A stretch of 20,036 bases of DNA from an uncultured Pseudomonadota bacterium. GTDB lineage: Bacteria > Pseudomonadota > Gammaproteobacteria > Burkholderiales > SG8-41. Under the pieces are notes generated by a model. The model did no database searches. It was given only the letters and a program-made list of their open reading frames with translations, and was not told the origin of the DNA. How positions within the stretch are numbered: position 1 is the first letter of the stretch; the number at the start of each line of letters is the position of its first letter. Shown piece after piece: positions 8,734-12,770 of this stretch. Both the position numbers and the translations under genes were made by a program. Where the stretch lies: contig CAMPGR010000063.1 in NCBI GenBank assembly GCA_946885605.1, forward strand, positions 1 through 20,036, given 5' to 3'.

Positions 8734-8772
8734 CCCCAGCACGCATTTACCGTGCAATATTCCCGCATTCCT

Positions 8773-9900
8773 ATGACAGAAGCCGCCCTGGTTCAGCCGC
8801 CCGCGCCCGCCGGCACCACGCACGTGCCCGAAGGCACAGACCTCATCGAATGGTATTACGAGCATGGATACTCCGACGGGCTTCCGCTCGTGCCGCCGAC
8901 GCCCGACAAGATCGCGGCGGTGCTCGAAGCGCTGGGCGGCGAGGCCAGCGAGACGCTGTGCCGCGTGCCGCCGCGCTGGGGCAGCCTCACGCGCGAAGTG
9001 CTTGCGATCAACATGGTGATGGCGGGGTGCCGTCCCGAGTATGCGCCGGTGGTCGAAGCGGCAATCCTCGCGCTTTGCGCGCCGCCCTTCAACCTGAACG
9101 GCGTGCAGACAACGACCCACATGGCGAGCCCGCTGCTGGTGGTGAACGGGCCGGTGCGTAAATCGATCGGCATGAACGCAGGCTGCAACGTGTTCGGCTC
9201 GGGAAACCGGGCGAACGCGACCATCGGCCGCGGGCTTCGTCTCATGTTGCTCAATGTCGGCGGCGGCTGGCCGGGGCTCCTCGACAAGAGCACGCTCGGC
9301 CATCCCGGCAAGTACGCCTATTGCATCGCCGAGAACGAGGAGGCAAGTCCCTTCGCGCCGTATCACGTGGAGAAAGGCTACCGTGCGGAAGACTCGACGC
9401 TGTTCGTGCTTGCCGCCGAGCCCCCGCACAGCATTACGAACCACTTCGCCAACGACGCCGAGGGCATCCTCGACAGCGTGTGCTCGGCGATGAGCACGAT
9501 CTGCAACAACAACGCGGTCTCGGCGGGCCATTGCGCGGTGGTGCTCGGTCCGGAGCATGCAGCGACCATTGCAAATTGCGGCTGGAAGCGCCACGACATT
9601 CGCAATTATCTGTGGGCGCACTCGGGCAACCGCTGGGGCGACCTCTACGGCAACGGCCGCTACGGCAAGGTGTACAACCGCAACCTTCCGGTGTGGTACA
9701 AGCGCGAGCCGGATGCGCGCACGCCGATCGTGCCGAGTCCCGAGCACATCCATCTCTTCGTGGCGGGCGGCGAGGCGGGGCGTTTCTCGGCGTTCATTCC
9801 GGGCTGGGGCCACATGTCCTCGCCCGTGCTGCGCGCGATCGGCGGCGGGGCGCCCGCGGCCGGCGGCCCGCAGTGCGTGGATGGAACCTGTTATCTGTGA
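8773..9900 (+). CDS. Conserved Cys-containing protein, neighbour of the UGSC selenoprotein
   Basis: This 375-aa protein belongs to a conserved family I recognise by its opening HGYSDGLPLVPPTPDKI (from residue 31) and by MAGCRPEYAPV (83-93), MNAGCNVFG (134-142) and TLGHPGKYAYCIAENEEASP (from 174). I recall relatives being labelled loosely as thiol-disulfide oxidoreductases, without experimental support that I know of. It has no signal peptide or membrane segment. Conserved-looking cysteines are Cys86, Cys138 and Cys184, and the protein ends in CVDGTCYL, so Cys368 and Cys373 form a flexible C-terminal CX4C pair that could exchange electrons with a partner. It is the first gene of a five-gene operon; the selenoprotein starts 17 bases after its stop. 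The in-frame GTG at 8752 is an alternative start adding 7 residues. Biochemical role unknown. Confidence 0.88.
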   Translation: MTEAALVQPPAPAGTTHVPEGTDLIEWYYEHGYSDGLPLVPPTPDKIAAVLEALGGEASETLCRVPPRWGSLTREVLAINMVMAGCRPEYAPVVEAAILALCAPPFNLNGVQTTTHMASPLLVVNGPVRKSIGMNAGCNVFGSGNRANATIGRGLRLMLLNVGGGWPGLLDKSTLGHPGKYAYCIAENEEASPFAPYHVEKGYRAEDSTLFVLAAEPPHSITNHFANDAEGILDSVCSAMSTICNNNAVSAGHCAVVLGPEHAATIANCGWKRHDIRNYLWAHSGNRWGDLYGNGRYGKVYNRNLPVWYKREPDARTPIVPSPEHIHLFVAGGEAGRFSAFIPGWGHMSSPVLRAIGGGAPAAGGPQCVDGTCYL

Positions 9901-9917
9901 CGAATGCGGAGGCGATG

Positions 9918-10472
9918 ATGAAGACGATACCGGTATACGATCCGCGCGGCGTGGTCGAGGCGACACCGCTTGCGCTCGCGCCACGGGCGAAGAGCCTCGA
10001 AGGCTTGCGCCTCGCGCTCCTCGACAACACCAAGTGGAACGCGAACAAGCTTCTGCGCGGGGTGCGGGACAGGCTCGCGGAGAAGCACCGCTTTGCCGCG
10101 GTCAATTATTACCGAAAGGAAAGCTTTTCGCTGAACGCCAGGCCCGAGCTGATCGACGAGATCGCCGCGAACAACGATCTCGTCCTCACCGCCATCGCGG
10201 ATTGAGGCTCCTGCACGTCGTGCTGTATGCACGACTCGGTGATGCTCGAGGCAAAAGGGCGTCCGACGGCGATGATCGCGACCTCCGAATTCGTGCTCGA
10301 GGCGCAAACCCAGCGTGATGCGCTCGGCATGACGGGCTTCGAGCCGGTCGTGATCACGCACCCGCTAAGCTCGCTGACCGCTGCGGAGATCGCGCGGCGC
10401 ATCGAGGAGGCGCTGCCGCAGATCGAGTCCGTGTGGTCGCGGGGCAGCGTGCGGGCCGATAACGCGCAGTAA
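9918..10472 (+). CDS. UGSC-family selenoprotein (Sec96 encoded by in-frame TGA)
   Basis: Read through the TGA at 10203-10205, this gene gives a 184-aa protein. The part before the TGA ends NNDLVLTAIAD and the part after it begins GSCTSCCMHDSVMLEAKG in the same frame, so the centre is Sec96-G-S-Cys99-T-S-Cys102-Cys103. That is the defining motif of the UGSC (seleno)protein family. It also resembles the Sec site of glycine reductase protein B (GrdB, UGTCTRCG as I recall it), but in a protein less than half that size. Sec96-x-x-Cys99 has the spacing of a thioredoxin-like redox pair. A SECIS-like hairpin follows the TGA. Start ATG 9918 was chosen over ATG 9915 because GGAGG (9908-9912) is 5 bases away. 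An ordinary gene caller would stop at 10205 or start anew at 10227. The reaction is unknown; a cytoplasmic redox role is inferred. Confidence 0.92.
10214..10241 (+). promoter_or_regulatory. Bacterial SECIS-like hairpin
   Basis: GTCGTGC (10217-10223) and GCACGAC (10229-10235) form a perfect 7-bp stem capped by the loop TGTAT. CAC (10214-10216) and GTG (10239-10241) extend it by 3 bp across a 3-base bulge. The loop begins 18 bases after the TGA, within the 16-37 base distance known for bacterial SECIS elements. The loop has a G in its first two positions, also as in the bacterial consensus. It would bind SelB to direct Sec insertion. The structure overlaps the codons for CTSCCMHDSV, so the same bases also encode conserved residues. 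Confidence 0.72.
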
Positions 10473-10489
10473 CGATACGGAGCTTGCCC

Positions 10490-11857
10490 GTGAAGGAAAT
10501 GCGCATTGTCTCTGCAACCGGCATCCTGGGGTCGGGCTTTCGCGAGGAGACGCTCAAGCGCGCGATGCGCCGCGAGCCGCATTTCATCGGCGCCGATTCC
10601 GGCTCGACGGATCCCGGGCCGCATTATCTCGGCTCGGGCGAGACGCTTTTCTCCGATTCGGCGTACAAGCGCGATTTGAGCCTCATTCTCCTTGCCGCGC
10701 GGGCGGCGAAAGTGCCGGCCATCATCGGCTCGGCGTGCACCTCGGGAAGCGACCCGCAGCTCGCGCGGCTCGCCGGCATCGCGCGAGAGATCGCGCGCGA
10801 GGAGGGGCTTTCCTTCAAGCTCGGCGTCATCCACAGCGAGCAGGACAAGGGCTATCTCAAGCGCAAGTTCCGCGAAGGCAAGGTGACCCCGCTTGCCAAC
10901 GCGCCCGAGCTCACCGAAGCGGTGATCGACCGCAGCGCGCATATCGTGGGCATGGCGGGCATCGAGCCGTTCGTCGAAGCGCTGGATAACGGGGCGGAAG
11001 TCGTAATCGCAGGGCGCTCGAGCGACACCTCGATTTTCTCCGCGATGCCGGTGATGCACGGCCTCAATCCCGCGACCGTATGGCACGCCGCGAAGATCCT
11101 CGAGTGTGGGGCGGCGTGCGTGGTGATGCGCAAATACCCGGACTGCATGTTCGCCACCGTGCGCGACGACCACTTCATCGTCGAGCCGCCGAATCCCGAC
11201 TACCGCTGCGATCCGGCGAGCATTGCCTCGCACAACCTCTACGAGAATTCGACGCCTTACGAGCTTCGGGAGCCGTCCGGCGTGCTCAACACGTACTGCG
11301 CAAAATACGAAGCGCTGTCGGACCGCGCAGTGAAAGTGTCGGGCAGCACGTTTACACCGGCATCGCGCTATACGATCAAGCTCGAAGGCGCGGAGCTTGC
11401 GGGCTACCAGACGATACTGATCGGCGGCGTGCGCGATCCCATCATCCTGCGCCAGTTCGATTCGTGGGTCGAAGGACTCCTACGTGCGGCAAAGGATCGC
11501 ATCGCAGCGGTGTTCGGCCCGGGCATCGAGGAGAAGTACCGGCTCGACATACGCGTGTTCGGGCGCAACGCCACCATGGGCCCGCTCGAAAGCGAGACGG
11601 CGATCGGCCACGAGGTCGGCTTGCTGTTCCAGGTCACCGCCGATACGCAGGAACGGGCGACGGCGCTCATGAAGTCGGTGAGCCACATCGCGGTGCATTA
11701 CCCGGTGCCGGAGTGGACGGGTCTCATTACTTCCATCGCCTACCCGTACTCGCCGTCCGAAATCCCGCGCGGACCGAGTTACCGCTTCAACATGAACCAC
11801 GTCGTCGAGCCGGATTCTCCGCTCGAAATGTTCCGCATCGAATACGAGCAGGTGTGA
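10490..11857 (+). CDS. DUF1446 / acyclic terpene utilization AtuA-family protein
   Basis: This 455-aa protein matches the DUF1446 family, named after AtuA of the citronellol/geraniol (acyclic terpene) pathway. Recognisable stretches are the N-terminal MRIVSATGILGSG, FIGADSGSTDPGPHYLGSG (32-50), the IIGSACTSGSDPQL segment and IAGRSSDTSIFSAMP. It is soluble, with no signal peptide. The start GTG 10490 was chosen because CGGAG (10478-10482) is 7 bases upstream; the TTG at 10484 is too close and the ATG at 10499 lacks a good site. None of the geranyl-CoA carboxylase or other atu genes is nearby, so terpene use is not implied. The gene is 17 bases after the selenoprotein stop and 3 bases before DUF4387, its usual partner. 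Molecular activity is not established. Confidence 0.92.
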   Translation: MKEMRIVSATGILGSGFREETLKRAMRREPHFIGADSGSTDPGPHYLGSGETLFSDSAYKRDLSLILLAARAAKVPAIIGSACTSGSDPQLARLAGIAREIAREEGLSFKLGVIHSEQDKGYLKRKFREGKVTPLANAPELTEAVIDRSAHIVGMAGIEPFVEALDNGAEVVIAGRSSDTSIFSAMPVMHGLNPATVWHAAKILECGAACVVMRKYPDCMFATVRDDHFIVEPPNPDYRCDPASIASHNLYENSTPYELREPSGVLNTYCAKYEALSDRAVKVSGSTFTPASRYTIKLEGAELAGYQTILIGGVRDPIILRQFDSWVEGLLRAAKDRIAAVFGPGIEEKYRLDIRVFGRNATMGPLESETAIGHEVGLLFQVTADTQERATALMKSVSHIAVHYPVPEWTGLITSIAYPYSPSEIPRGPSYRFNMNHVVEPDSPLEMFRIEYEQV

Positions 11858-11860
11858 ACG

Positions 11861-12169
11861 ATGGCCAAGCTCTGGCAGCTGACCAAGCTGATTCGCAGCA
11901 AGAACGCGGGCCCGTTCGAGCTCACGTTCGATGTCATCTTCAAGGACCGCGAAAGCTACGAGCGGGTGCGCGACGCGAAGCTCATCAACGCCGGGTGGTT
12001 CGCCAGGACGTACCGCCTTACACCCGAGGTGGTCTCGATCATCGACTACGATGCAGCGAGCGCGATCAAGATCACCATCCCGCGTCCCGTCATCTCGGGC
12101 GACATCGACGATACGGACGTTTTCGGCGGCCAGCAGCACGGCCCGCTGGTGGACCTCGAAGTTCCCTGA
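11861..12169 (+). CDS. DUF4387 protein, small partner of the DUF1446 protein
   Basis: This 102-aa soluble protein matches the DUF4387 family by WQLTKLIRSKNAGPFELTFDVIFKD at the N-terminus and by IDYDAASAIKITIPRP and SGDIDDTDVFGGQQH near the end. In many bacteria this domain is encoded directly after, or fused to, a DUF1446 protein, so the two are probably subunits of one enzyme; here the gap is 3 bases, which suggests translational coupling. The function is unknown. It is shorter than 110 residues and lacks cysteines, so a direct redox role is unlikely. Confidence 0.92.
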   Translation: MAKLWQLTKLIRSKNAGPFELTFDVIFKDRESYERVRDAKLINAGWFARTYRLTPEVVSIIDYDAASAIKITIPRPVISGDIDDTDVFGGQQHGPLVDLEVP

Positions 12170-12179
12170 AGGAAAACAG

Positions 12180-12770
12180 ATGCCACGCATCAAGCCGCTG
12201 CCGCAGGACACGCATCAGGATCTCGCAAGCACCTTCGAGACCTATAAGAACTATCTCGGCTATCCGCCGAACAGCGTGCTCATCATGCAACACCGCCCGA
12301 AACTCGTGAAGGCGCTTGCCCAGATGGCATCCGCGGTGTGGGACAAGCAGAGCGAAGTCGATTTGGGCTTCAAGCGGCTCGTGGCCTACATGGCGAGCCG
12401 CACGCATGGCTGCAGCTACAGCATGGCGCATGCCGCGGAAGCCGCGCATCGCGTCGGGATGGACGACGCAAAACTGGAAGCGGTCGTCGACTACCACACG
12501 AGCCCGCTCTTCACCGAAGCGGAGCGCATCGCGCTCGACTATGCGATCGCGGCCGCTTCACAACCCAACGCGGTGACGGAAGAGCTGTTCGCGCGCATGA
12601 AGCAGCACTGGACCGATGCGCAGATCGTCGAGATCACGGCCGCCGTTGCGCTCAACGGCTTTCTCAATCGCTGGAGCGACTCGCTTGCGGTGCCTTTGGA
12701 GCCGGAGCCCACCGAATTCGCCGAGATGCATTTGAAGCGTCATGGTTGGCGCGCCGGCCGGCACAAGTAA
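12180..12770 (+). CDS. Carboxymuconolactone-decarboxylase/AhpD-fold protein with single active-site Cys
   Basis: This 196-aa all-helical protein belongs to the CMD/AhpD superfamily, which includes gamma-carboxymuconolactone decarboxylase and the peroxidase-related AhpD proteins. The core is FKRLVAYMASRTHGCSYSMAHA (from residue 64). In AhpD-like members this site reads CxxCxxxH or similar; here Cys78 is kept, Ser81 stands at the second Cys position and His84 remains. The C-terminal half ALDYAIAAASQP...WTDAQIVEITAAVALNGFLNRW is typical of the larger, uncharacterised CMD proteins. AAGGA lies 6 bases before ATG 12180, starting at the stop codon of DUF4387, so it completes the operon. A disulfide reductase mechanism of the AhpD type is unlikely with one Cys unless a partner supplies the other thiol or selenol. 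Confidence 0.92.
   Translation: MPRIKPLPQDTHQDLASTFETYKNYLGYPPNSVLIMQHRPKLVKALAQMASAVWDKQSEVDLGFKRLVAYMASRTHGCSYSMAHAAEAAHRVGMDDAKLEAVVDYHTSPLFTEAERIALDYAIAAASQPNAVTEELFARMKQHWTDAQIVEITAAVALNGFLNRWSDSLAVPLEPEPTEFAEMHLKRHGWRAGRHK

What the first reader, a model, noticed from the sequence alone, without database searches (positions are those of the whole stretch)
9918..10472. In-frame TGA read as selenocysteine in a UGSC-family protein
The frames before and after TGA 10203-10205 are the same frame and join into one coherent 184-aa protein. The TGA stands exactly at the U of U-G-S-C-T-S-C-C, the motif for which the family is named. Neighbouring genes use TGA as a normal stop, so code reassignment is excluded. 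Without readthrough the operon would have an orphan 95-aa piece and an orphan 81-aa piece. The biology of this selenoprotein group is, to my knowledge, not worked out.
Basis: partly seen in the sequence, partly recalled or inferred. Interest (0 to 1): 0.95.

Follow-up and report, generated by a model that had tools for sequence, protein, structure and literature searches.

The report
Expanded two-part selenium enzyme family
This bacterial gene, interrupted by a stop-type codon that is very likely read as selenocysteine, belongs to a family that related genomes carry in up to about thirty such copies, nearly every copy examined lying beside the same partner gene, and each pair is predicted to form an enzyme related to glycine and proline reductases.

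Summary
The ORF 9918-10472 is one frame with a single TGA at 10203-10205 and scores above the cut-offs of Pfam UGSC and NCBIfam UGSC_fam. The TGA is very likely selenocysteine: of 80 related genome loci 21 have TGA at this column and 59 have TGC or TGT; a stem-loop fitting the published bacterial SECIS model follows, and across 82 TGA copies its stem is kept far beyond what the protein forces, with changes on both sides of pairs. Genomes with TGA copies carry selA, selB and tRNA-Sec much more often than others. The window's own genome is not held, so its sel genes are untested.

The function, a two-part reductive selenoenzyme, is inferred and untested. The family is known; its scale, partner and kinship were not met in the papers searched.

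The parts
9918..10472 (+). UGSC-family ORF, 184 aa with selenocysteine predicted at residue 96
10203..10205 (+). in-frame TGA, predicted selenocysteine codon (U of UGSC)
   Evidence: TGA in 21 and Cys codon in 59 of 80 related loci
10217..10235 (+). predicted bacterial SECIS hairpin: stem 10217-10223 with 10229-10235, loop UGUAU 10224-10228, 18 nt after the UGA
   Evidence: model constraints from a passage of PMC13188914
8752..9900 (+). P382, partner protein of 382 aa, no Pfam or NCBIfam match; near-invariant Cys93 and, in this subfamily, a C-x4-C tail
   Evidence: beside UGSC in 79 of 80 loci; fused in 17 of 65 further pairs
9908..9912 (+). GGAGG, likely ribosome-binding site of the UGSC ORF
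   Evidence: read from the sequence
10484..11857 (+). AtuA-like gene directly downstream; probably same operon but no match beside UGSC in the 80 loci
   Evidence: PF07287 60.1 bits
11861..12169 (+). DUF4387 gene following the AtuA-like gene; no match beside UGSC in the 80 loci
   Evidence: PF14330 119.5 bits

Best explanation
The TGA at 10203-10205 is very likely read as selenocysteine in a UGSC-family protein, and this protein together with the product of the gene just upstream (8752-9900) is predicted to form a two-part selenoenzyme that would reductively cleave a bond in a small organic substrate, as glycine and D-proline reductases do. Shown here: one frame across the TGA; TGA or a Cys codon at that column in all 80 loci examined; a conserved hairpin after the TGA, with changes on both sides of its pairs, that fits the published bacterial SECIS model; a constant partner gene, sometimes fused; sel genes going with the TGA form in relatives; many divergent paralogous pairs per genome. 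Inferred: that the window's organism has the sel genes; that UGSC shares descent with the Sec domain of GrdB/PrdB (supported by profile comparison); that Sec96 is the nucleophile that attacks substrate carbon, is released by Cys99 as a selenenylsulfide and is then reduced by a thiol donor, for which the C-x4-C tail of the partner is a candidate in this subfamily; that the partner binds the substrate. The paralogues would then be versions for different substrates.
For: TGA/Cys column; purifying selection after the TGA; hairpin against a synonymous null, 6.24 against 4.39 of 7 pairs, 0 of 2,000 shuffles, strict SECIS rule in 69 of 82 TGA copies and 8 of 59 Cys loci. SelA over cut-off in 17 of 19 genomes with a TGA-UGSC and 39 of 181 others of a 200-genome draw; SelB in 20 of 21 TGA genomes. 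Partner beside UGSC in 79 of 80 loci and 65 of 70 further copies, 17 fused. UGSC profile against 20 PF07355 proteins: probability 82.5, E 9.8e-6, Sec columns aligned; these 20 take ranks 1-13 and 18 of the top 22 among 235 proteins. Mechanism of the reductases from passages of PMC10298544 and PMC13188914.
Against: No selenium measurement; own genome not held. With the narrower 26-sequence alignment the GrdB/PrdB match falls to probability 16.5, E 0.0015, and a Pfam scan of three UGSC proteins at E up to 10 lists no PF07355. The model has no clear solved relative. The partner shows no link to a known pyruvoyl subunit: PF09338 was not found in 21 genomes, but the control did not ring either. One TGA copy (L199) has no hairpin that fits, and 12 fit only under a loose rule that 21 of 59 Cys loci also pass. 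Two of 19 TGA genomes lack SelA over cut-off. No substrate is known, and neighbouring genes vary.
Confidence: 0.6

Rival explanations
1. UGSC is a selenocysteine-containing thiol-disulfide redox protein, a UxxC oxidoreductase that reduces or repairs the partner or another protein, rather than an enzyme attacking substrate carbon.
For: UxxC is a common redox motif; PMC2398784 (passage) judged the fold likely Trx-like; the C-x4-C tail of P382, kept in 36 of 37 sequences, could be its redox partner.
Against: The model has five strand-helix repeats with flavodoxin-like top matches; profile similarity points to PF07355; about thirty divergent pairs per genome look more like substrate-specific enzymes than repair proteins.
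Confidence: 0.3
2. The TGA is read through as another amino acid, by suppression or near-cognate reading, without selenium.
For: Not excluded for the window itself, whose genome is not held.
Against: The alternative codon is Cys in 59 of 59 loci without TGA; the hairpin fits the SECIS model; TGA copies go with the Sec machinery, and in at least 11 of 22 genomes one lies within about 10 kb of selA, selB or tRNA-Sec.
Confidence: 0.03
3. The TGA is a real stop or an error and the gene is a broken copy (pseudogene or sequencing error).
For: A TGA inside an ORF is by default a stop; the window gives one sequence only.
Against: TGA with the same hairpin loop in 21 other loci; dN/dS 0.12-0.21 after the TGA against six close relatives; TGA in 101 of 108 and 83 of 87 matches of nine genomes.
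Confidence: 0.02

Closest known systems
UGSC family (seleno)protein, NCBIfam NF041046 / Pfam PF24696
   Same: Full-length match above both cut-offs and the U-G-S-C motif; known as a selenoprotein family since marine metagenome surveys (PMC2398784, passages)
   Different: Function not given in the passages read; the constant partner gene, the 16-30 copies per genome and the GrdB/PrdB resemblance were not met there
GrdB/PrdB, selenoprotein B of glycine and D-proline reductase (Pfam PF07355)
   Same: Sec in a UxxC motif after a strand, similar profile over 95 columns with Sec columns aligned; larger partner encoded nearby
   Different: No direct HMM match; UGSC is smaller and stands alone or fused to P382; no pyruvoyl subunit identified (inconclusive)
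UGSC/Unknown_1 fusion of the GOS survey (PMC2398784)
   Same: A UGSC protein fused to another conserved domain; P382 may be that domain (inference)
   Different: Its alignment is in a supplement not readable here, so identity is untested
FdhA beside selA-selB-selC in Alpha- and Betaproteobacteria (PMC1794560, passages)
   Same: A selenoprotein gene next to the insertion machinery
   Different: There FdhA is called the only selenoprotein of the genomes surveyed; here UGSC genes lie near sel genes in at least 11 of 22 genomes and may be many per genome

Membership tests
UGSC family (PF24696, NF041046) | HMM score above curated cut-off | tested here: met
   188.9 bits against 25 and 153.3 against 125
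UGSC family (PF24696, NF041046) | U/C-G-S-C motif at the conserved position | tested here: met
   U96-G-S-C; column invariant in the 26-sequence alignment, window Sec written as C
Bacterial selenoprotein | In-frame TGA aligned with Cys in homologues | tested here: met
   21 TGA and 59 Cys codons in 80 loci
[quoted passage not shown]
   7 bp, loop UGUAU, 18 nt, -14.5 kcal/mol for 41 nt; constraints from PMC13188914, passage
Bacterial selenoprotein | selA, selB, selD, tRNA-Sec in the same genome | not testable with these tools
   Window genome not held; in relatives; selD was not searched
Bacterial selenoprotein | Selenium present in the protein | not testable with these tools
   Needs 75Se labelling or mass spectrometry
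GrdB/PrdB (PF07355) | Direct HMM match to PF07355 | tested here: not met
   Not listed for three UGSC proteins at E up to 10 (HMMER filters drop weak matches)
GrdB/PrdB (PF07355) | Remote similarity of the Sec domain with coinciding Sec column | tested here: met
   Probability 82.5, E 9.8e-6; ranks 1-13 of 235; only 16.5 with the narrower alignment
[quoted passage not shown]
   PF09338 found in 0 of 21 genomes and in no control; P382 keeps Cys93 in 54 of 56
GrdB/PrdB (PF07355) | Reductive cleavage through a selenoether | not testable with these tools
   Biochemical test needed
Thioredoxin-like fold | Thioredoxin topology | tested here: inconclusive
   Model has five strand-helix repeats and flavodoxin-like top matches; absence from these lists excludes nothing

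The most novel reading that the evidence does not exclude
UGSC and its partner are a third branch of the glycine/proline-reductase selenoenzymes, at work outside the amino-acid-fermenting clostridia. In some Betaproteobacteria it has radiated into 16-30 selenocysteine-dependent two-part enzymes per genome, each for a different small substrate, making these among the most selenoprotein-rich bacteria known, through a single family.
Probability: 0.45. Interest if true: 0.85.

Novelty: new variant of a known kind. Interest (0 to 1): 0.66.

Why it matters
A 2006 survey lists one selenoprotein family for Betaproteobacteria, with FdhA beside selA-selB-selC as the only selenoprotein (PMC1794560, passages), and a 2016 survey gives at least 39 genes as the largest bacterial selenoproteome (PMC5029168, passage). 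Genomes related to this window carry up to 30 TGA-containing matches from one family. Such genes are easily annotated as fragments or missed. The constant partner and the GrdB/PrdB resemblance give a concrete, testable idea of what UGSC proteins do, and the paralogue set offers natural variants for finding substrates. If the copies are all made, these organisms would need much selenium, which would matter for selenium cycling where they live.

Tried and rejected

Limits of sampling: the genome scan used the patterns DCGSC[TC]S[CAG]C and KWNANKLL, so TGA forms enter only by the second and 21 against 59 is no prevalence; 80 of 89 confirmed loci were kept. A1 holds 26 of 121 proteins. A2 holds 37 and A3 56 chosen partner sequences. 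Neighbour tallies scanned 85 of 108 and 130 of 186 calls of a simple codon-usage gene caller of mine, so misses are likely. Copy counts come from draft genomes of unknown completeness, some copies lie at contig ends, and the 200-genome survey scored at most 16 candidates per genome. The position of the TGA was checked only in fetched copies (G005, G002, 12 of 18 in G003, G016). The 65-bit line for tRNA-Sec is mine; the tool's own cut-off also lets ordinary tRNAs pass (38 of 48 genomes, 5 of 14 controls). The synonymous null used codon usage pooled from the TGA-rich loci, also for the Cys loci. The UGSC model was built with Cys at residue 96.

Full report
OBSERVATION. The frame 9918-10472 is open apart from TGA 10203-10205 and encodes 184 residues with Sec predicted at 96. 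It matches PF24696 at 188.9 bits and NF041046 at 153.3 bits, both above their cut-offs and across the TGA. TGA is a normal stop in neighbouring genes, among them the partner, AtuA-like and DUF4387 genes. In-frame ATGs at 9915 and 9918 follow GGAGG (9908-9912); 14 bases lie between the stop of the 382-codon gene 8752-9900 and the first ATG.

THE TGA COLUMN. In 80 related loci from the genome collection the codon at this column is TGA in 21 and TGC or TGT in 59; L016 has a second copy, also TGA. The closest relatives, L001-L005 and L016, are 78-82% identical and all TGA. Against these six, dN/dS is 0.12-0.21 after the TGA and 0.10-0.15 before it; nine more distant comparisons give 0.17-0.62 after and 0.13-0.47 before. 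Because one of the two scan patterns can only find Cys forms, the ratio is not a prevalence.

THE HAIRPIN. A five-base loop UGUAU begins 18 nt after the UGA and is closed by seven pairs. Folding energy alone is unremarkable to modest against dinucleotide shuffles (z -0.9 to -2.3 for four stretches), so the comparative evidence matters. The same loop at the same place occurs in all 21 first-set TGA loci. I took 82 TGA copies: 65 from the second set below, which includes the window and both copies of L016, and 17 further first-set loci after removing three duplicates. Mean pairing at this register is 6.24 of 7, against 4.39 (sd 0.14) in 2,000 shuffles that keep the protein; none reached it. 63 copies have all seven pairs and 7 have six. 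The Cys loci average 4.10, above their own null of 2.86 (sd 0.17), which may be remnant structure or codon bias. Pairs change on both sides, for example C-G in 44 copies and G-C in 34 next to the loop, and U-A in 63 and A-U in 6 lower down. 69 of 82 copies meet a strict rule (six or more pairs, G in the first two loop positions), 12 fit only at another register or loop and 1 (L199) nowhere; 8 of 59 Cys loci meet the strict rule, and 21 of 59 pass the loose one. The constraints of the published bacterial SECIS model, read as a passage of PMC13188914, are met by the window.

MACHINERY IN RELATIVES. The window's genome is not held. Of 48 genomes holding the loci, the 21 found through TGA loci have SelB over cut-off in 20, SelA in 20 (one more partial) and tRNA-Sec at 65 bits or more in 19; the 27 found through Cys loci have 8, 11 and 11. 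One of the 27, G048, also holds a TGA-UGSC. In a draw of 200 genomes of the order of G005, 20 have UGSC over cut-off and 19 of them a TGA copy. SelA is over cut-off in 17 of these 19 and in 39 of the other 181 (Fisher p 5.8e-9). In at least 11 of the 22 first-set genomes with a TGA-UGSC (G001, G004, G006, G007, G012, G014, G015, G017, G018, G019, G048) such a gene is on the same contig within about 10 kb of selA, selB or tRNA-Sec. In the order draw the same holds next to selA in G177, G215 and G221. A 2006 survey reports that the Sec-decoding Alpha- and Betaproteobacteria it examined have an fdhA gene there, as their only selenoprotein (PMC1794560, passages).

THE PARTNER. The upstream gene, here P382, has no Pfam or NCBIfam match. 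It is directly upstream of UGSC in 79 of 80 loci; the exception, L079, begins at a contig end. In 60 further loci plus L016 and the window, 65 of 70 UGSC copies have a same-strand P382 match nearby; one of these lies 1.3 kb away (L142) and one is a weak partial match of 34 bits (L179). The 5 copies without lie at contig ends. 17 of the 65 are one uninterrupted frame, UGSC always first; of 48 separate pairs 29 have UGSC first and 19 P382 first. Varied order together with fusion is good evidence of joint function. P382 homologues are numerous: 7,952 of the 7,999 scored candidates. In the window's subfamily a C-x4-C tail is kept in 36 of 37 sequences; across 56 diverse members Cys93 is kept in 54. 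A 2008 survey noted a UGSC fusion with an unnamed domain, Unknown_1, and thought UGSC likely Trx-like (PMC2398784, passages); its supplement was not readable here.

THE EXPANSION. Five genomes reached through TGA loci hold 32, 22, 19, 18 and 17 UGSC matches, of which 30, 20, 18, 17 and 16 contain one TGA: 101 of 108. Four more, from the order draw, hold 26, 24, 19 and 18, of which 24, 23, 19 and 17 contain a TGA: 83 of 87, three of the other four being under the cut-off. The 27 Cys genomes hold one or two. Among the 70 copies read, 65 have TGA followed by GxC; of the others 3 form a Cys group with CGTS and 2 are truncated. Paralogues of G005 are divergent: median identity 25% for UGSC and 32% for P382. 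All are drafts of unknown completeness. The largest selenoproteome named in PMC5029168 is at least 39 genes, in Syntrophobacter fumaroxidans (passage). A groundwater genome study that may bear on this (Deng et al. 2026, cited in PMC13188914) was not seen.

RELATION TO GrdB/PrdB. The UGSC model is a five-fold strand-helix repeat with residue 96 in the loop before helix 97-112. 17 of the 21 TGA genomes hold PF07355 proteins over cut-off, six of them read here with an in-frame TGA in a UPxC motif (L200, L202, L207, L208, L211, L214). Profile comparison of 90 UGSC sequences with 20 of these proteins gives probability 82.5 and E 9.8e-6 over 95 columns with the Sec columns aligned; UGSC against P382 gives 0.3. 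As a wider control the UGSC profile was compared with 235 single proteins, 215 of them genome neighbours: the 20 PF07355 proteins take places 1-13 and 18 of the top 22. With the narrower 26-sequence alignment the probability is only 16.5, and a Pfam scan of three UGSC proteins lists no such match. I call it a likely distant relative, not a member.

MECHANISM. In glycine and D-proline reductase a selenolate is thought to form a selenium-carbon bond with the substrate, broken by a thiolate to give a selenenylsulfide; in proline reductase the substrate is held on a pyruvoyl group, which the cited titles derive from a cysteine (PMC10298544, passages; PMC13188914, passages). By analogy Sec96 would attack substrate carbon, Cys99 would release it and P382 would hold the substrate; the C-x4-C tail may return electrons in this subfamily. 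All of this is inference. Neighbouring genes (CoA transferase, MmgE/PrpD, MaoC, TRAP and TctC receptors, acyl-CoA dehydrogenase) suggest small organic-acid catabolism but differ from locus to locus, so no substrate is named.

LITERATURE. A search for UGSC with selenoprotein gave 8 papers and UGSC as a whole word 15, several unrelated. Passages were read in PMC2398784, PMC13188914, PMC9312934, PMC5029168 and PMC9402790; no function of UGSC was given there. The others were seen as listings only. The expansion in Betaproteobacteria and the GrdB/PrdB link were not met in these passages or in the listings of searches; papers outside this open library were not searched.

VERDICT. The protein is a member of a known family; what appears new is the scale, the constant partner and the likely kinship with reductive selenoenzymes.

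Noticed in passing
Cys loci among L018-L080: At the hairpin register Cys-type UGSC genes pair better than a synonymous null (4.10 against 2.86 of 7): possibly remnants of a lost SECIS, or codon bias of other genomes.
   Followed up: no
L016 13906-15527: A second UGSC (TGA) and P382 pair, in reversed order, lies about 3.9 kb downstream of the first.
   Followed up: partly
L200, L202, L207, L208, L211, L214: PrdB/GrdB-like PF07355 proteins with an in-frame TGA in UPxC in the same kind of genomes.
   Followed up: partly
L146 2971-3513, L179 2971-3516, L193 2989-3534: A UGSC subgroup with CGTS instead of UGSC: Cys codon in place of TGA and no second Cys; L146 and L193 are fused to P382.
   Followed up: no
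genomes G002, G003, G005: At least 149 TctC receptor genes per genome (limit of scoring; 303-488 first-look candidates).
   Followed up: no
window 12129-12770: CMD-domain protein with a sub-threshold match to NF053654 YciW-related (seleno)protein (77.8 bits, cut-off 310); its ORF has no in-frame TGA.
   Followed up: partly
L006: A contig titled Klebsiella pneumoniae MAG carries a UGSC 68% identical to the window's and near-identical hairpin to L007, a betaproteobacterial MAG; probably a mislabelled bin.
   Followed up: no
plasmid records H1-H12: UGSC-family matches on 12 plasmid or megaplasmid records, including haloarchaeal and actinobacterial ones.
   Followed up: no
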